Positions 1,388 through 14,897 of a stretch of DNA of 26,764 nucleotides are shown here, piece by piece; the stretch's first letter is position 1; each line of letters starts with the position of its first letter. Position numbers and translations under genes: made by a program. Location: IMG/VR virus record IMGVR_UViG_3300049001_000005, positions 1 through 26,764 of that record, one strand, 5' to 3'. The notes below the pieces were generated by a model. It was not told the DNA's origin. It did no database searches and worked only from the letters and a program-made list of their open reading frames with translations. Source of the stretch: a virus.

Positions 1388-2659
1388 GTGCTGTTTAGGG
1401 CCGCAGCGGGCACCCTAGAGCGCCGTAGCGAGTGGGGGACGACTGATCCGCCGTCTCCGGGCAGCATGGGCGGCTACGTCGAAGCTGGGCAGCTTGTCTC
1501 GGAGTACACGGCGCTTCAGGTTGCTGCGGTCTACGGGTCCGTTTCGATCATCGCGGACGCGGTTTCGACGCTGCCGATCCAAACCTTTAGCTCGGAGCTC
1601 GCCGCGACCCGCAGAGAACTTCCACCGGGGCCACTCATCACGAAGCCGTACGCGGAGATCAGCCGCATCGACTGGGTTGTGCAATACGTCACAAGCATGG
1701 CGTTGCGCGGCAACTTCTTCGGGCACATCATCGAACGCGACAACGAGCTGTACCCGACGCAGATCCGTCCTGTCCATCCGTCCTACGTGACAGTTCGTAG
1801 AGTCACGACGGGACCGAAGCGAGGACAACCGGAGTATCGCTTCCAAGGCGACCTGATCCCATACGACGACATCCTGCACATTCGCAACCTGTCGGTTCCC
1901 GGTGCGCTTGTCGGGCTGAACCCGATCGAGCAACTACGTGTGACGATGGGGCTCGCCCGCGCGCAGGATCTATACGGCGGTAGCTACTTCGCGAACAGTG
2001 CGAACCCGTCCGGTGTTATTGAGATGGAAGGCGAGATGAACGCCGACGAGGCGAAGCTACTCGCGGCACGCTGGCGCGATATGCACCAGGGCGCGTCGAA
2101 AGCGAACATGCCGGCAGTCTTGACGGGTGGCGCGACGTTCAAGCCGATCAGCATCACTCCCGATGACTCACAGTTTCTAGAAAGCCGCGCATTTTCACAG
2201 GGCGAGATCAGTGGCATGATCTTCCGGGTGCCGCCGCATATGATTGGGATCGTAGACAGGTCTACATCGTGGGGTCAGGGCATCGCTCAGCAGGAGCAGG
2301 GGTTTGTAACGAACACGCTCATGCCGTATCTCGCGAGGCTTGAGGAGGCCCTCACGGCACTTGGCCCGCAGGACGGGCGCACTAACAAGTTCAACGTGAA
2401 TAAGCGCATGCGCGGCGACAAGCTCCAGCGCTACCAGGCGTATGGGCTCGGCATGGCGGCGGGGTTCCTGTGTCCGGACGACGCAAGAGCTGAAGAAGAC
2501 ATGAAACCGCTGCCGGACAAACTCGGTCAGACGTATATGGTGCCCATAAATAGCCAAACCATAAAGCAAGCTGTTACCGAAAGTCTACATCCAGAGCAAT
2601 CTCAACCAGCGGCGGGCGTGTCCCAGAACGGGAACGGAGGAGGTAAGGCGAATGACTGA
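1388..2659 (+). CDS. Phage portal protein (HK97 type)
   Basis: The portal is the dodecameric ring at one vertex of the head through which DNA enters and leaves, and to which the terminase and then the connector bind. The 423 residues match the usual length of HK97-like portals. Visible family signatures are the N-terminal helix region TALQVAAVYGSVSIIADAVSTLP (about residues 41-63), the block GNFFGHIIERDN, the HIRNLSVPG strand, LYGGSYFANSANPSGVIE, and the late segment FSQGEISGMIFRVPPHMIG. The last is the typical wall and stem transition of these proteins. The start is GTG, one base after the preceding stop, with AGGG seven bases upstream. The end overlaps the protease gene by 8 bases. The Gln/Asn/Gly-rich C-terminus is probably disordered. 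Confidence 0.93.
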   Translation: MLFRAAAGTLERRSEWGTTDPPSPGSMGGYVEAGQLVSEYTALQVAAVYGSVSIIADAVSTLPIQTFSSELAATRRELPPGPLITKPYAEISRIDWVVQYVTSMALRGNFFGHIIERDNELYPTQIRPVHPSYVTVRRVTTGPKRGQPEYRFQGDLIPYDDILHIRNLSVPGALVGLNPIEQLRVTMGLARAQDLYGGSYFANSANPSGVIEMEGEMNADEAKLLAARWRDMHQGASKANMPAVLTGGATFKPISITPDDSQFLESRAFSQGEISGMIFRVPPHMIGIVDRSTSWGQGIAQQEQGFVTNTLMPYLARLEEALTALGPQDGRTNKFNVNKRMRGDKLQRYQAYGLGMAAGFLCPDDARAEEDMKPLPDKLGQTYMVPINSQTIKQAVTESLHPEQSQPAAGVSQNGNGGGKAND

Positions 2660-3539
2660 CATAGCCATAGAAGCTCCCCCGATCGAGACCGACACTCTCG
2701 TTGAAACACGAGTGGTTGATACTGACTTAGAATTTCGCAAGCGCAAGGCCGAGCAGGCGAAGGGTACGATTGAGCATCGACAGTTCGTTGCGCATGACCT
2801 TGAGGTGCGCACGCTGGACGACGGCACGATTCGGATGCGTGGGTATGGCTCCGTGACCGAACACGACTATGAAGTCGGTCCCTTTGTCGAGAACATGCGT
2901 AGGGGGTCATTCAAGCGGACCCTAGGGGAAGACCCTGACGTAATTCTCTTGTTCGGTCACGAGGGAATGCCCCTAGCGCGATCTAAGTTTGCGGGCACGT
3001 TGGCTATGGAGGAGAACTCCAATGGACTTCACTGGACGGCGGACCTTGACGGAGAGGACCCTGACAGCCGCGTGCTTGCACGTAAGGTTGAGCGTGGACT
3101 TATCACAGAGTGTAGCATCGCCTTTCAGGTGACTGACCAGGAATGGTCGGAGGACTATAAGCACCGCTCCATAAAAAGTGTCTCGTTGCACAGGGGAGAC
3201 ATCTCGCTTGTCTCACGTGGAGCTAACGACGCAACGTCCGTGGCGGTACAACGTGGCGAGGTGATTGGCGCGCTTCAAGAGGTTCGTGCTGGCAAGTCTC
3301 TGTCCGCTGCCACGATGGAAACGTTGACGCAAGTACTCAACCTCGTGGCAACCGCCGATGAAGCGGTAGACGAGGCTCAGCCGATGCTCGCTGAGCTCAT
3401 GGGCGTTCCGAATCCCGACGAGCCCGAACCGGACGCACCGGAAGCCGAGGACGCGTCGCAGCAGAACGCCTACGTGATGCCGGACTACACGACACGAGCG
3501 CTTGAGCGTGTCGCCATCCTGCGCGCGGGAGGTCGATGA
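2652..3539 (+). CDS. HK97-family prohead maturation protease
   Basis: A serine protease that is packaged in the prohead and cuts capsid delta domains, triggering maturation. The core (about residues 50-200) carries the family pattern: GYGSVTEHDYEVGPFVENMRRGSF at the start, the catalytic histidine in LLFGHE (H103), the nucleophile in ECSIAF (S155), and the closing block DISLVSRGAND. The first ~45 residues and the acidic, Pro/Glu-rich C-terminal ~95 residues lie outside the catalytic core and may serve as scaffold or targeting segments. The gene overlaps the portal gene by 8 bases and ends in an ATGA overlap with the first capsid gene. Its natural substrate is probably the second capsid protein, the one with a delta-like region. 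Confidence 0.93.
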   Translation: MTDIAIEAPPIETDTLVETRVVDTDLEFRKRKAEQAKGTIEHRQFVAHDLEVRTLDDGTIRMRGYGSVTEHDYEVGPFVENMRRGSFKRTLGEDPDVILLFGHEGMPLARSKFAGTLAMEENSNGLHWTADLDGEDPDSRVLARKVERGLITECSIAFQVTDQEWSEDYKHRSIKSVSLHRGDISLVSRGANDATSVAVQRGEVIGALQEVRAGKSLSAATMETLTQVLNLVATADEAVDEAQPMLAELMGVPNPDEPEPDAPEAEDASQQNAYVMPDYTTRALERVAILRAGGR

Positions 3540-4660
3540 TGCCTATCGTCGAGACAAACGGGCGCGTGGAGATCACGCACGAGCCCCTGACGTACACACG
3601 CAACGGCTCGCACTCCTACTTTCAGGACATGGCCGTCTACGCGGACCGCCACGACTCCCAGGCTGGTGAGCGTCTGCAACGCCACGCGACTGAGATCCGC
3701 ACAGAAGTCGAGCGACGCGAGCAGCACGCTCAGTCGACCGTGCGGGCCGCGGGCCTTGAGCTTCGACTGAACGTCACGCGCTCGGATGGGACGGGCGGAT
3801 TCGCGTGCCCGCCACTGTGGCTCATGGATGACATCGCGCTCATGCCACGTCCCGCACGGGTTCTCGCGAACCTCATGCCTAGCTTCCCATTGCCGCGGGG
3901 TGTCGGTGAGGTCAGCGTTCCCAGGATCACAACAGGCGTCCTCACGGGCGTGCAGAACGACTCGACAGCGGTCAGTAGCCGAGACATCGTAGACACGTCC
4001 AGCACCTCGGCGGTCGCGACGATCGCCGGTGAGGCGGACATCACGCTTCAGCTACTTGAGCAGTCCCCACCCGGTGGCTACCTAGATCACGTCATCTTCA
4101 GGGATCTCGCGAACTCCTATGACTTCAGGCTTGAGCTCCAGCTACTCAACGGCACGGGAACCAATGGGCAGCTCCTGGGCGTTTTGAACGTTACGGCCGG
4201 CGCGGGTAACGCGAGCGAGATCACGTACACGGACGGCTCCCCAACGGCACTGGAGATGCTTCCGTTCGCTGGGCAGGCTGTCGCGCAGCTCGGCAACGCA
4301 CGACTTCTGCCGCCTGAGGTGTGGTTGATGCGCACGTCGCGTTGGGCGTGGATCAACTCTGCGGCATGGCCCGCGCTGGAGCCCCCGACGTTCCTGACGT
4401 ACCCGGTCATGGAGGACAACGCGATCCCCGCAACGCTCGGCGCCGCGAGTAATCAGGACGTGATCATCCTGTGCCGCCCGTCCGACATGCTGCTGCTGGA
4501 GTCCGCTCCTAAGACGGTCGTGGACTTCGAGTCGATGTCCGGCACGATGGGCGTCCGCCTAAGCCTCAGGGGCTATGTGGCAGCGTTGACGGCGCGGCAG
4601 CCGACAGCGATAGCGCGACTCATCGGCACCGGCATGATCCCAGTCTCCGGCTTCGCCTAG
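3536..4660 (+). CDS. HK97-fold major capsid protein paralogue 1, without delta domain
   Basis: A 374-residue capsid protein of the HK97 fold. It aligns by eye with the second capsid protein (4813-6435) over nearly its whole length. Shared blocks include LTY followed by SHS-YF-D, GGFACPPLW, TIAGEADITLQLLEQSP and the C-terminal SGTMGVRLSLRGYVAALTAR. The charged N-terminal region of about 100 residues in paralogue 2 is missing here; the shared part begins about 15 residues in. The start is ATG in an ATGA overlap with the protease stop, with a second ATG one codon later equally possible. Translational coupling suggests it is made together with the protease. It could be a minor capsid subunit (for example pentons) or a duplicate. 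Homology is clear, but which subunit builds the shell is inference. Confidence 0.88.
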   Translation: MMPIVETNGRVEITHEPLTYTRNGSHSYFQDMAVYADRHDSQAGERLQRHATEIRTEVERREQHAQSTVRAAGLELRLNVTRSDGTGGFACPPLWLMDDIALMPRPARVLANLMPSFPLPRGVGEVSVPRITTGVLTGVQNDSTAVSSRDIVDTSSTSAVATIAGEADITLQLLEQSPPGGYLDHVIFRDLANSYDFRLELQLLNGTGTNGQLLGVLNVTAGAGNASEITYTDGSPTALEMLPFAGQAVAQLGNARLLPPEVWLMRTSRWAWINSAAWPALEPPTFLTYPVMEDNAIPATLGAASNQDVIILCRPSDMLLLESAPKTVVDFESMSGTMGVRLSLRGYVAALTARQPTAIARLIGTGMIPVSGFA

Positions 4661-4673
4661 GCCGTTTCACGAC

Positions 4674-4689
4674 TTACACCCCCGTGTAA
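4674..4689 (+). other. RNA hairpin downstream of capsid gene 1
   Basis: A perfect 6-bp stem (TTACAC/GTGTAA) with a CCCC tetraloop lies 13 bases after the stop of capsid gene 1. No T-run follows, so it does not look like a classical terminator. Together with the next hairpin it occupies the only sizeable untranslated gap (4661-4812) in the head genes. Confidence 0.45.
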
Positions 4690-4704
4690 CAACCGCAGTA
4701 CCGA

Positions 4705-4717
4705 CCCCACGTTGGGG
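4705..4717 (+). other. Second RNA hairpin between the two capsid genes
   Basis: A 5-bp stem (CCCCA/TGGGG) with a three-base loop lies 15 bases after the preceding hairpin. It is not followed by a T-run. The rest of the gap to 4812 is C-rich and holds only the ribosome site GAAAGGA (4800-4806) of the next gene. I saw no promoter-like pair of boxes. Confidence 0.35.
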
Positions 4718-4812
4718 CTCCACCGAAGCGCGCCACAGGCCCAACACGCCCACGGCCCGCCGCACGGTCGGGCATCGCCTGGGAGACACAGGACACTCCC
4801 GAAAGGAACCCA

Positions 4813-6435
4813 ATGCCCGAAACCGTCGAGCAGCTCACACTGCTTGAGAAGCTCCAACGAGCCCGCGTGGAGAGCATCAACGCTCTCGCCGCGCTCGTGG
4901 ACAAACGCACCGAGGACCGCGACGCTTTCGAGAAGCGCACAGGAGACGACAAGCCAACCGACGAGCAGCGCGCAACATTCGCCGCCGCCGAGGAGGCGTT
5001 CGGTGAGGACTTCGCCCGTAAGGACGCGGAGATTAAGAGCCTCGACCGTCGCATCGCTGAGCAGGAGATCGTGGAGAAGCGCCGGCAGGCCGCAGCGCAA
5101 GCCTCCGGCACGAGCGTCAGCATCACAAGCGAGGCACTTACGTATCGTAAGGACAACTCGCACACGGTCAGCTACTTCCGAGACCTCGCGACGAACACCG
5201 TCCGCGGCCTAGAGATCGGAGACCCCAAGGGCGCCGACGAACGCCTCAGGCGCCACGCGTCCGAGATGGCCGTCGAGCTCCCGAAGCGCGAGACGGACCG
5301 CGAGCGGCGCGCAATGGCGGCCGTCGACCGCGCCGAACGAGAGTTCACGCGCACGATGCCCGGAACCGACACGCGCGGGCTCGACTCGTCGGTGTTCGAG
5401 AAGCGCGTCAACCCCAACACCACGGACGGGCAGGGCGGCTACGCCGTTCCGCCACTCTGGATCATCGACGACTACATCATGCTCCAGCGGGCAGGACGGG
5501 TCGCCTCGAATCTGGTTCGTTCGATGCCGCTTCCGGAGGGTACGAACCAGATCAACATTCCGAAGCTCTCCACCGGGACCGCTGTTGGACCCCAGGTTGA
5601 GAATGCCGCGGTGCTCTCGCAGGATCTGACGGACACGAGCGTGTCCTGCTCGGTCAAGACGATCGCCGGCCAGGAGGATGTCTCAATCCAGCTTCTGGAG
5701 CAGTCTCCCGGAAGCATCATGGACCGCGTCATCATGGAAGACCTCCTCGCGGACTACAACCGCATCGTGGACCGCGACGTGATGTACGGCGGTGGCGACT
5801 CCGCGAACAAGATCAAGGGCATCTGGCCCACGGGCAACTGGTCAGGCGCGGTCATCACGTCCGCCACGGCCGGTAACACGGGACCGGGGTTCTTCCAGAC
5901 ACAGGGCGCGATGCTCAGCAAGATCGCTACCACACGGTTCAGCCTGGAGAACGTGCATTTCATCATGGCTCCCCGCCGCTGGTTCTGGTGGGCGACACAG
6001 CTTGACGGCGCGTCAGGCACGGTCGGCAAGCCACTCATCGGTGCCGTCAACTACGGTCCCTTCGACCCTGAGGCTCTGCATGCCGGTACGCCTCACGAGG
6101 GGCTCGTTGGACATTCCAAGATGGGTCCGTTCAACTACTACGCGAGCGCGAACGTCCCGACGACGGACGCTGCGGCTTCCACGACGGTGACCGCGAACGT
6201 GGTTGACGGTGCCTTCGATCAGGTGCTGGCGTGCAAGTGGGATGACATCTGGTTGTTTGAGGGTGCGCTACGCACACGAGTTCTGCCTGAGGTGCTGAGC
6301 GGCACCCTCCAGGTTCGTTTTCAGCTTTACAACTACGTTGCGCAGCTCGTCAGGTACGCCGCGTCTATCTGTATCGCCCAGGGCGCTGGTCTACCACAGC
6401 CGAAGGGTTTGATTGACACGGCCATGGCGTACTAG
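4813..6435 (+). CDS. HK97-fold major capsid protein paralogue 2, with N-terminal delta-like domain
   Basis: A 540-residue capsid protein, the likely main shell subunit. Residues 1 to about 100 are highly charged, helical and coiled-coil-like (EQLTLLEKLQRARVESINAL onward, ending KRRQAAAQASG). This is the character of the delta (scaffolding) domains removed by HK97-type proteases. The HK97 fold follows: GGYAVPPLW near residues 211-219, TIAGQEDVSIQLLEQSPGSIMDRVI in the spine and P-domain area, the variable A-domain, and the closing strand SGTLQVRFQLYNYVAQLVRYA. ATG with GAAAGGA six bases upstream fixes the start. It differs from paralogue 1 mainly by the delta region, an extra segment around residues 110-200 and longer loops. 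The gene lies between RNA hairpins on both sides, which may help to set its expression. Confidence 0.93.
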   Translation: MPETVEQLTLLEKLQRARVESINALAALVDKRTEDRDAFEKRTGDDKPTDEQRATFAAAEEAFGEDFARKDAEIKSLDRRIAEQEIVEKRRQAAAQASGTSVSITSEALTYRKDNSHTVSYFRDLATNTVRGLEIGDPKGADERLRRHASEMAVELPKRETDRERRAMAAVDRAEREFTRTMPGTDTRGLDSSVFEKRVNPNTTDGQGGYAVPPLWIIDDYIMLQRAGRVASNLVRSMPLPEGTNQINIPKLSTGTAVGPQVENAAVLSQDLTDTSVSCSVKTIAGQEDVSIQLLEQSPGSIMDRVIMEDLLADYNRIVDRDVMYGGGDSANKIKGIWPTGNWSGAVITSATAGNTGPGFFQTQGAMLSKIATTRFSLENVHFIMAPRRWFWWATQLDGASGTVGKPLIGAVNYGPFDPEALHAGTPHEGLVGHSKMGPFNYYASANVPTTDAAASTTVTANVVDGAFDQVLACKWDDIWLFEGALRTRVLPEVLSGTLQVRFQLYNYVAQLVRYAASICIAQGAGLPQPKGLIDTAMAY

Positions 6436-6460: not shown

Positions 6461-6489
6461 GCCCGGGCGCTGTTGCCACAGCCCCGGGC
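6461..6489 (+). terminator. Strong hairpin after capsid gene 2, terminator-like for the minus strand
   Basis: Stem GCCCGGG/CCCGGGC continues, past one bulged C, into GCTGT/ACAGC with a TGCC loop: twelve pairs in all. On the plus strand no T-run follows. On the minus strand the stem is followed by CCTTTTC, so it could end leftward transcripts. On the plus strand it may protect the 3' end of the capsid message. The structure is plain from the bases; its function is inferred. Confidence 0.55.
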
Positions 6490-6504
6490 ACGGTCAACAC
6501 GAGT

Positions 6505-6508
6505 GGAG
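6505..6508 (+). promoter_or_regulatory. Ribosome site deciding the HNH gene start
   Basis: GGAG nine bases before ATG 6518. It favours this start over an in-frame TTG at 6473 that would lie inside the hairpin just upstream and has no ribosome site. Confidence 0.6.
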
Positions 6509-6517
6509 CGTGCCGAC

Positions 6518-7063
6518 ATGGCAGACGGTAGCAGGATGCGGCGATTGATCTGTGTCGTTTGCGGCGCAGGCTTTGAGAAGCCGCTTGGGAGTGGACGCCC
6601 AGCGCACGTGTGTTCACGGGCGTGTCACGAGGAGCGAGCAAGACGACGCTCTTCGGATTGGTACTACGCCAATCTTGATCGAGTCGCACTACAGCGTTCG
6701 CAGCAGTCCGCACAGAAGTCTGCCTACAACGCAGCCTATTACCAAGCGAACCGCGAGAGCGAAATTCAACGCGCTCTGGAGTATGCTCGTGGCCCTGGTA
6801 GGGCCGCAAAGGCTGCGCGTGATGCTGCACGTTTCGCTTTGACACGTGGAGCGTCTCATGCCGAACGGTTCACGCTTGACGAAATCTACGAGCGTGACGG
6901 TCGAACTTGCTCGCTGTGTCGCAAGCCGGTAGATCGTCAACAAGCCACTATGGATCACATAATCCCAGTGACCAAGGGTGGTCCCCATACGCGAGCGAAT
7001 GTGAAGCTCGCCCATCGTGGTTGCAACACCCGGAAGGGCAATCGGTTGCTTCCCATGACCTAA
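6518..7063 (+). CDS. Free-standing HNH endonuclease with N-terminal zinc-finger motif
   Basis: A 181-residue nuclease of the HNH type, as found in phage homing genes that cut DNA and promote their own spread. The N-terminus has a CxxC finger (CVVCGAGF) and a second Cys pair (CSRAC). An Arg-rich helical linker with many Ala follows. The C-terminal HNH module reads FTLDEIYERDGRTCSLC, then MDHIIPVTKGG, then NVKLAHRGCNTRKGNR, with both zinc CxxC-type knuckles and the DH catalytic pair present. The gene sits between capsid gene 2 and a beta-rich virion gene, on the same strand, and interrupts no recognisable ORF. It looks intact. Whether it still homes, or takes part in packaging as some phage HNH proteins do, cannot be told; distance from the terminase favours homing. 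Confidence 0.88.
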   Translation: MADGSRMRRLICVVCGAGFEKPLGSGRPAHVCSRACHEERARRRSSDWYYANLDRVALQRSQQSAQKSAYNAAYYQANRESEIQRALEYARGPGRAAKAARDAARFALTRGASHAERFTLDEIYERDGRTCSLCRKPVDRQQATMDHIIPVTKGGPHTRANVKLAHRGCNTRKGNRLLPMT

Positions 7064-7101: not shown

Positions 7102-7110
7102 CGAATCAAA

Positions 7111-7728
7111 ATGGCCGGCGACCTAGTTTCAGGAGGTTACCCCACGGGGTATTCCTTCGCGAAGATCACGGGCCTCGCGCGTAACACCGCGCAGGGCAAC
7201 ATCAACATCCGTTCCAACATGGAATGGTTCGGACTGGCGAACCCAACGGACGGTGCCCTCGCGGGAACGGGCGTGGGTTGCGCGGTGGCGATTCCCGTTG
7301 AGTGGGGCGACACAATCACGAAAATCTCGATCCTCGCGGGTGCAACAGCGGAAGGGACAGGCACACACACGTTCGCTGCGCTGTACTCCGGGATCGCGAC
7401 CCCCGCGCTCATGGCGCAAAGCACGGATGTCACAACTGCTGCGGCTGTTGCAGCTAGCGCGAAGTACGATTACACGCTGGCGACCGCTCAGACGATCACG
7501 AGCACGAACGCACCGGGCGGGTTCATCTACGCCAGCATCGTCGTGACGGCCACGACGGTGCCGACCGCGGCCTCCGTGTCGATCCCGACAGCGATCGGCT
7601 ACCAGTGGTTCTCCGCTGGCCCGCTGTTTCTGTCGGCTACGCATGGGTCGGGTCTCACGGCGACGGCTCCCGCAACAATTGCGTCGCCTTCCGCGAAAGC
7701 GGTAGCACCGCTCGTTTTCTTGTCCTAG
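7111..7728 (+). CDS. Beta-rich virion protein, probable capsid decoration or fibre
   Basis: A 205-residue protein rich in Ala, Thr, Ser and Gly, with no signal peptide or membrane segment. The patterns IPVEWGDTITKISILAG, HTFAALYSGIATPALMAQS and GGFIYASIVVTATTVPTA give a steady alternation of beta strands and small turns. This resembles the jelly-roll or sandwich domains common in phage structural proteins of actinobacterial viruses. I recognise the style, not a named family. It is the first gene of the beta-rich island between capsid and connector genes, so a head-bound protein is the simplest reading. The stop overlaps the GTG start of the next gene by one base (TAGTG). Confidence 0.7.
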   Translation: MAGDLVSGGYPTGYSFAKITGLARNTAQGNINIRSNMEWFGLANPTDGALAGTGVGCAVAIPVEWGDTITKISILAGATAEGTGTHTFAALYSGIATPALMAQSTDVTTAAAVAASAKYDYTLATAQTITSTNAPGGFIYASIVVTATTVPTAASVSIPTAIGYQWFSAGPLFLSATHGSGLTATAPATIASPSAKAVAPLVFLS

Positions 7729-14276: not shown

Positions 14277-14897
14277 ATGACCAAATGCAGGAAATGCTCA
14301 CGGTCGCTGACGGAAGATCAATTCTATCCGTCTCGACCGGGGGAGTGTAAGGATTGTCGTAAGGCATACACAGCCGCTAGGCGCAAGGCTGACCCAGAGA
14401 CAACACGTCGCTATGCGCGGGAAGCGTATCGTCGCAAGCGAGCAGAACTGATTGCTCAACTGCCGCGCATCTGCGAGCACTGCAAGGGAGCAATTCCACA
14501 TGAGCGAGGAATCGACGCATGCTTTTGCTCGCGGGGATGTGTCATAGCAGCACAAGAGGCACGCTATCGAGAGGCGGCCTTGAAGCTTCGCGAAGGACGA
14601 ACGTGTGATCGCTGTGGCGTGCCTATCCCGATAAGCCGGAGTCCAAGGGCTACGACCTGTTCTATCAAATGTAGGGACACTCTCAACGAGCGTCAACTAA
14701 TGCATCGCAAGTGCCGAATGCTCAGTCATTACGCAGTCAAGATGGGGCGACTCGTCAAACAACCCTGCGAGGTCTGTGGCTCTCTCGACGTTGAGATGCA
14801 TCACGAGGATTACTTCGAGCCATTGAATGTGCGGTGGTTCTGCTTCCTGCACCATCGCACGGTGATGCACGGCCAACAAGTGGTAGATAGGAGTTGA
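14277..14897 (+). CDS. HNH-type endonuclease with several zinc knuckles
   Basis: A 206-residue, Arg- and Cys-rich protein. It has three N-terminal Cys modules: CRKCSRSLTEDQFYPSRPGECKDC, then CEHCKGAIPHERGIDACFCSRGC, then CDRCGVPIPISRSPRATTCSIKC. The C-terminal module PCEVCGSLDVEMHHEDYFEPLNVRWFCFLHH has the CxxC, HH and late C..HH pattern of a degenerate HNH domain common in phage genomes. Its catalytic His-His pair (MHHED) is kept. Charged helices join the modules. The gene is inserted between neck genes and the major tail protein on the coding strand, like a mobile homing gene. It does not resemble the HNH protein at 6518 beyond general architecture, so the two probably arrived separately. 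Confidence 0.78.
   Translation: MTKCRKCSRSLTEDQFYPSRPGECKDCRKAYTAARRKADPETTRRYAREAYRRKRAELIAQLPRICEHCKGAIPHERGIDACFCSRGCVIAAQEARYREAALKLREGRTCDRCGVPIPISRSPRATTCSIKCRDTLNERQLMHRKCRMLSHYAVKMGRLVKQPCEVCGSLDVEMHHEDYFEPLNVRWFCFLHHRTVMHGQQVVDRS

What the first reader, a model, noticed from the sequence alone, without database searches (positions are those of the whole stretch)
3536..6435. Two divergent HK97-fold capsid proteins side by side, only one with a delta domain
Both proteins share GG(F/Y)A-PPLW, TIAG-(E/Q)D(I/V)(T/S)-QLLEQSP and the closing SGT---R--L--YVA strand, so they are paralogues. Only the second has the charged N-terminal region of about 100 residues that looks like a cleavable scaffold. 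In HK97-like phages one protein normally builds the entire shell; T4 has separate hexon and penton paralogues. The pair here could be a hexon/penton division in which the short paralogue enters without being cut. Both frames are intact and encode conserved blocks, which argues against a decayed duplicate.
Basis: partly seen in the sequence, partly recalled or inferred. Interest (0 to 1): 0.75.

Follow-up and report, generated by a model that had tools for sequence, protein, structure and literature searches.

The report
Second capsid protein, probable vertex subunit
These uncultured phages, probably of soil actinobacteria, carry two related shell proteins side by side, and family-wide evidence suggests that the short one is a real, protease-trimmed minor shell subunit, most likely the one that forms the corners of the head, a division of labour well documented in phage T4.

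Summary
Window 3536-4660 (S, 374 aa) and 4813-6435 (M, 540 aa) are intact HK97-fold paralogues, 30% identical. The pair is not unique: 41 distinct contigs (the window and IMG/VR relatives) carry one S and one M, 24 long contigs carry exactly one of each, and none of 50,697 cultured-phage records does. S forms one clade, evolves in parallel with M (Mantel r 0.79) and is under purifying selection (dN/dS mostly 0.12-0.37), so it is no decayed copy. The interpretation needs one correction. S lacks only the N-terminal coiled coil of M's propeptide. It keeps the second half and the Arg at the maturation cut mapped experimentally in mycobacteriophage LittleE (Arg in 56 of 57 S), so S is probably cut too. 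M has the codon bias of an abundant protein and S that of the protease; T4 gp23 and gp24 show the same contrast. S also has a shorter loop in the capsomer-centre A-domain. Best reading: S is a low-copy, protease-matured shell subunit, most likely the penton, with M the hexon, as in T4 gp24/gp23 and SaPIbov5 Ccm. The vertex position is inferred, not shown. New variant of a known kind.

The parts
1388..2659 (+). portal protein
   Evidence: PF04860 E 4e-75
2652..3539 (+). head maturation protease (S78)
   Evidence: PF04586 E 3e-23; its stop codon overlaps the S start codon
3536..4660 (+). S: short HK97-fold capsid paralogue, 374 aa; predicted mature form residues 78-374
   Evidence: PF05065 E 9e-11; BLASTP to M 30%, E 7e-52; AF2 pLDDT 79.8, HK97 fold
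3527..3541 (+). ATGATG start overlapping the protease TGA, with GGGAGG upstream: probable translational coupling
   Evidence: sequence; 25 of 36 family members tested have the same 4-base ATGA overlap with the protease stop
3764..3766 (+). codon of S Arg77, predicted P1 residue of the maturation cut
   Evidence: aligned with the LittleE cut site EYR|DLD; Arg in 56/57 S, 40/44 M, 49/51 single MCPs
4346..4426 (+). shortened A-domain loop of S (between RW and IP motifs)
   Evidence: S shorter than M in 37 of 39 pairs, p 9e-8
4661..4812 (+). S-M intergenic region; M has its own Shine-Dalgarno (GAAAGGA, 4801-4807)
   Evidence: sequence; similar leader before most M genes
4813..6435 (+). M: long HK97-fold capsid protein, 540 aa; predicted mature form residues 199-540
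   Evidence: PF05065 E 1.4e-8; AF2 pLDDT 72.9, HK97 fold
4840..5106 (+). coiled-coil half of M's propeptide (M residues 10-98), absent from S
   Evidence: two long helices H10-40 and H50-98 in the AF2 model; alignment
5404..5406 (+). codon of M Arg198, predicted P1 residue of the maturation cut
   Evidence: same alignment column as S R77 and the LittleE cut

Best explanation
S and M are two subunits of one shell. M is the abundant hexon protein: it carries a ~198-residue propeptide with a coiled-coil scaffold half. S is a low-copy second HK97-fold subunit made by coupled translation from the end of the protease gene. It carries a ~77-residue propeptide without the coiled coil, joins the prohead, is cut by the same S78 protease at Arg77, and most likely forms the pentamers at the eleven non-portal vertices, as gp24 does in T4 and Ccm in SaPIbov5 capsids. 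Shown by sequence: paralogy, fold (predicted), stable one-S-one-M pairing, parallel evolution, purifying selection, retained cut site, weaker codon bias of S across the family. Inferred: presence in the virion, actual cleavage, low copy number, vertex position.
For: Pair in 41 non-redundant contigs; a whole-contig search of 27 records found exactly one S and one M in the 24 with both, never a third copy. S is one clade with full support. S and M distances correlate, Mantel r 0.785, 0 of 5000 permutations. dN/dS of S is similar to that of M, and in the closest pair S 0.12, M 0.16. The cleavage Arg is kept in 56/57 S although S lost the coiled coil; the protease acts on prohead proteins, so keeping its site suggests S is assembled into proheads. 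Codon bias, C/(C+T) in two-fold codons, n=38: M 0.93, S 0.84, protease 0.84, M>S p 1e-5. Controls: single MCP > protease p 1e-6; T4 gp23 0.54, gp24 0.32, gp21 0.33. A-domain loop shorter in S in 37/39 pairs; the A-domain stretch up to RW is the only segment clearly more conserved in S than in M (0.58 vs 0.54), and most S-specific residues are absent from single MCPs. Precedents: T4 gp24, ~20% identical to gp23, 10- versus 65-residue propeptide (PMC9958956); Ccm pentamers with CP hexamers, 24% identical, shorter delta domain (PMC8569155).
Against: No virion, mass-spectrometry or structural data. In the window itself the codon-bias gap is small (S 0.842, M 0.863, protease 0.725). Related single-MCP phages such as BAKA build a T=13 head with one protein, so S is not needed for this fold to close a shell (PMC3706429). 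One bacterial chromosome, Paraconexibacter antarcticus, carries protease+S with no M anywhere in the genome, and a few short contigs show S without M, so S may sometimes act without M, although those loci look degraded or partial. SD strength differs little between S and M. A-domain shortening and codon bias fit any low-copy shell subunit, not only a penton.
Confidence: 0.62

Rival explanations
1. S is a minor subunit mixed into hexamers or sited at random, a scaffold-poor isoform that dilutes the coiled-coil scaffold and so tunes shell size or curvature.
For: S lacks exactly the coiled-coil half of the propeptide and keeps the rest; N-arm, E-loop and P-domain are all present.
Against: Fixed S/M differences in the spine helix and A-domain and a shorter A-domain loop suggest a distinct site rather than free exchange; both known capsid paralogues with solved positions that I found sit at pentamers.
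Confidence: 0.15
2. S forms a special ring or cap elsewhere, for example around the portal or neck, or acts only as a nucleator of assembly.
For: Gene lies between protease and M, next to portal genes; codon bias like a low-copy protein.
Against: Full HK97 fold and retained maturation site; separate connector genes are present downstream, PHROG 442 and PHROG 5.
Confidence: 0.12
3. S is a redundant or decaying duplicate of M.
For: Sister phages do without it; S evolves about 1.25 times faster than M in patristic distance.
Against: Intact in 57 family members, dN/dS mostly 0.12-0.37 and close to M (one divergent pair 0.54, its M 0.51), conserved through three gene orders, cleavage Arg in 56/57.
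Confidence: 0.03
4. S makes an alternative, smaller shell or serves in competition with other phages or satellites, as Ccm does for SaPIbov5.
For: Ccm precedent; an S with protease and helicase but no M, portal or terminase found in P. antarcticus.
Against: S travels with M in the phages themselves and evolves in parallel with it.
Confidence: 0.06

Closest known systems
T4 gp23 (hexon) / gp24 (vertex) pair
   Same: Two HK97-fold paralogues in one capsid gene cluster beside the head protease; the minor one has the shorter propeptide; gp24 has weak codon bias like the protease while gp23 is strongly biased.
   Different: T4 uses a separate scaffold (gp22, gp67, gp68) and gene 24 lies downstream of gene 23 with segD between; here the likely scaffold is a coiled coil inside M, S lies upstream of M in most contigs, and the sequences belong to another HK97 lineage (PF05065/PHROG 2263).
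SaPIbov5 Ccm with phage phi12 CP
   Same: Self-scaffolding HK97-type capsid; Ccm, 24% identical to CP and with a shorter delta domain, forms the pentamers; both are cut, with K/R at P1 (PMC8569155).
   Different: Ccm is brought by a satellite to redirect capsid size; S is encoded by the phage itself next to M.
Cluster J mycobacteriophage capsid (BAKA, LittleE, Omega)
   Same: With the Typha type, the closest cultured relatives of both S and M (34% and ~32% identity); same portal-protease-capsid order; mapped delta cut at EYR|; group I intron at the same capsid site.
   Different: One capsid gene only; T=13 head built from one protein.

Membership tests
HK97-type major capsid protein (PF05065 / PHROG 2263) | significant match to the family profile | tested here: met
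   S 9.2e-11 and M 1.4e-8 in Pfam, both ~1e-28 in PHROG 2263
HK97-type major capsid protein (PF05065 / PHROG 2263) | HK97 fold | tested here: met
   AF2 models, Foldseek to HK97 and D3 at E 1e-12 to 1e-14; predicted, not solved
Self-scaffolding MCP (HK97 gp5 type delta domain), asked of S | N-terminal delta domain with coiled coil | tested here: not met
   M meets it (residues 10-98 helical hairpin); S does not: median ~40 aa before the LTY motif versus ~112 in M
Self-scaffolding MCP (HK97 gp5 type delta domain), asked of S | maturation cleavage site of this family | tested here: met
   Arg at the LittleE cut column in 56/57 S and 40/44 M; cleavage itself not observed
HK97 gp5 proper | Lys-Asn crosslinking residues | tested here: inconclusive
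   alignment to HK97 shows no obvious equivalents in S or M, but it is weak there; Omega, a relative, is not crosslinked (PMC3706429)
dedicated penton protein (works like T4 gp24) | occupies pentameric vertices | not testable with these tools
   needs cryo-EM
dedicated penton protein (works like T4 gp24) | paralogue of the hexon protein in the same genome | tested here: met
dedicated penton protein (works like T4 gp24) | low copy relative to the hexon protein | tested here: inconclusive
   codon bias supports it family-wide but weakly in the window
T4 gp24 family (sequence membership) | homologous to gp24 by sequence | tested here: not met
   no gp23/gp24 family among Pfam and PHROG hits of S; nearest are PF05065 and PHROG 2263

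The most novel reading that the evidence does not exclude
S vertices without the scaffold coil set the size of the head, and mobile islands such as the protease+S+helicase island in Paraconexibacter antarcticus (L099) carry S alone to redirect the capsids of S/M phages, an actinobacterial counterpart of SaPIbov5 Ccm.
Probability: 0.08. Interest if true: 0.8.

Novelty: new variant of a known kind. Interest (0 to 1): 0.6.

Why it matters
A separate vertex protein built from the capsid fold is well documented in T4 and, brought in by a satellite, in SaPIbov5. A whole lineage of self-scaffolding HK97-type phages with its own second subunit would be an independent origin of that division of labour. 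It lies beside close relatives that manage with one protein, so what a second subunit buys (size, vertex stability, assembly control) could be compared directly. It also separates the scaffold coil from the rest of the propeptide, since S keeps one half and not the other. The lineage has no cultured member in the collection searched, which probably explains why it has not been described.

Tried and rejected
Decayed duplicate: rejected by dN/dS, intact frames and conservation in 57 members. 'No propeptide, not cut': rejected after reading the mapped LittleE cleavage. Before that I had taken the S N-terminus for a post-cleavage N-arm. Recent versus ancient duplication: unresolved. The tree puts S outside M plus single MCPs, but holding S+M together is not rejected (p 0.47), and the HK97/D3 outgroup is distant. 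SD strength as an expression proxy: little difference. C/(C+G) in four-fold codons: no signal. Cultured phages with the pair: none with three different S queries and one M query. Solved relatives by sequence for M: none. Promoters or terminators between the genes: none above chance. Literature searches for a phage-encoded second HK97-fold shell protein besides gp24 found none; the JBD30 hit is only wording.

Full report
What is there. The window is a 26.8 kb IMG/VR virus fragment. Its head genes run terminase (partial), portal 1388-2659, S78 protease 2652-3539, S 3536-4660, M 4813-6435. S and M match PF05065 and PHROG 2263 and each other at 30% identity, E 7e-52. AlphaFold2 with family alignments gives the HK97 fold for both (S pLDDT 79.8, M 72.9), with HK97, D3 and R4C capsids among the top Foldseek hits.

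How widespread. Profile scans of IMG/VR and one of GTDB genomes brought in 57 non-redundant S, 41 M of the long type and 54 MCPs of the single type. Forty-one contigs hold both an S and a partner MCP. A whole-record search of 27 contigs found exactly one S and one M in the 24 that have both; extra rows are pieces of one gene. Gene order is mostly protease-S-M, but S-protease-M (L092, L137) and M-S (L138) also occur. None of 50,697 cultured phage records has the pair; the only hits are single capsid genes of 57 mycobacteriophage records, cluster J and Typha types.

Is S maintained. S is one clade with full support. S and M patristic distances correlate at r 0.785, above all 5000 permutations. 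dN/dS of S ranges from 0.12 to 0.37 in all but one testable pair (0.54, where M is 0.51), close to M. Whether the duplication predates the single-MCP lineages is open: an S+M clade is not rejected, p 0.47.

Is S cut. In LittleE the mature capsid begins DLDRNNGTGGYAVP by Edman sequencing (PMC3706429), and its DNA reads ...GEEYR|DLDRNNGTGG. The aligned column is Arg in 56 of 57 S, 40 of 44 M and 49 of 51 single MCPs. In the window these are S R77 and M R198. S therefore keeps about 77 residues of propeptide homologous to the second half of M's, and lacks only the coiled-coil half (median ~40 versus ~112 residues before the LTY motif). Cleavage itself is inferred.

Copy number and site. Highly expressed genes prefer C-ending two-fold codons in these genomes: single MCPs exceed their protease, p 1e-6. 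In the pairs M is at 0.93, S and protease both at 0.84, M>S p 1e-5. T4 behaves the same way, gp23 0.54, gp24 0.32, gp21 protease 0.33. In the window itself the gap is small, 0.863 to 0.842. S has a shorter A-domain loop in 37 of 39 pairs. Residues fixed differently in S and M lie in the spine helix, the A-domain and other segments; for most, M shares the state of the single MCPs and S is the derived one, while at 315, 316 and 356 it is M that differs. In 25 of 36 members tested S starts inside the protease stop codon.

Mechanism. The reading that fits best is a low-copy shell subunit matured with M, most likely the vertex pentamer. Both cases I found of a second HK97-fold paralogue with a solved position are pentons with shorter propeptides: T4 gp24 (PMC9958956) and SaPIbov5 Ccm (PMC8569155). 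This is an argument by analogy; the position of S has not been observed, and hexamer mixing or a portal-side role remain possible.

Limits. Contigs count as distinct after removing identical copies, not as independent events; the permutation and paired tests do not correct for shared ancestry among the phages. Start codons of S and M were assigned by rule, not by experiment.

Verdict. Observation confirmed; interpretation partly supported, with the cleavage claim reversed. New variant of a known kind.

Noticed in passing
L034:7953-8181, L068:8778-9012, and the split M gene of L118:8967-9009: M genes interrupted at the GG(F/Y)|.PPLW codons by group I introns (Rfam RF00028, E 1.2e-7 and 5.5e-9, both just under Rfam's gathering score). 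L118 is split at the same place without an Rfam hit. The cluster J phage LittleE has a spliced intron at the same capsid site (PMC3706429).
   Followed up: partly
L099; L143:14407-20000 and L144:1-5262: Paraconexibacter antarcticus chromosome island with a helicase, head protease, an S with a longer N-terminus and an NlpC/P60 tail protein, but no M, portal or terminase found nearby: cryptic prophage or satellite.
   Followed up: partly
window 4797-4812 and the same place before most M and single MCP genes: The Shine-Dalgarno of M often lies in a tiny hairpin of the form (T/C)CC-GAAA-GG(A/G), e.g. TCC CGAAA GGA. Not tested statistically.
   Followed up: no
N-terminus of S in L027, L029, L034, L037; N-terminus of the protease in L006: An extra 80-100 residue domain of the type Y.WV.DF.D.YVVY, fused to S in some phages and to the protease in others; no Pfam match.
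   Followed up: partly
window 6473-7063 and 14277-14897: Free-standing HNH endonuclease genes between M and the next head gene, and within the tail-connector genes.
   Followed up: no
window 7108-7728; L005:2888-3622; L006:6660-7277: Conserved ~205-residue protein after M with no Pfam match (and no PHROG match for the L006 copy), a candidate decoration protein.
   Followed up: no
L042, L102, L108: Contigs with S (and protease in L102, L108) but no M; surroundings look degraded, host-like or cut by the contig end.
   Followed up: partly
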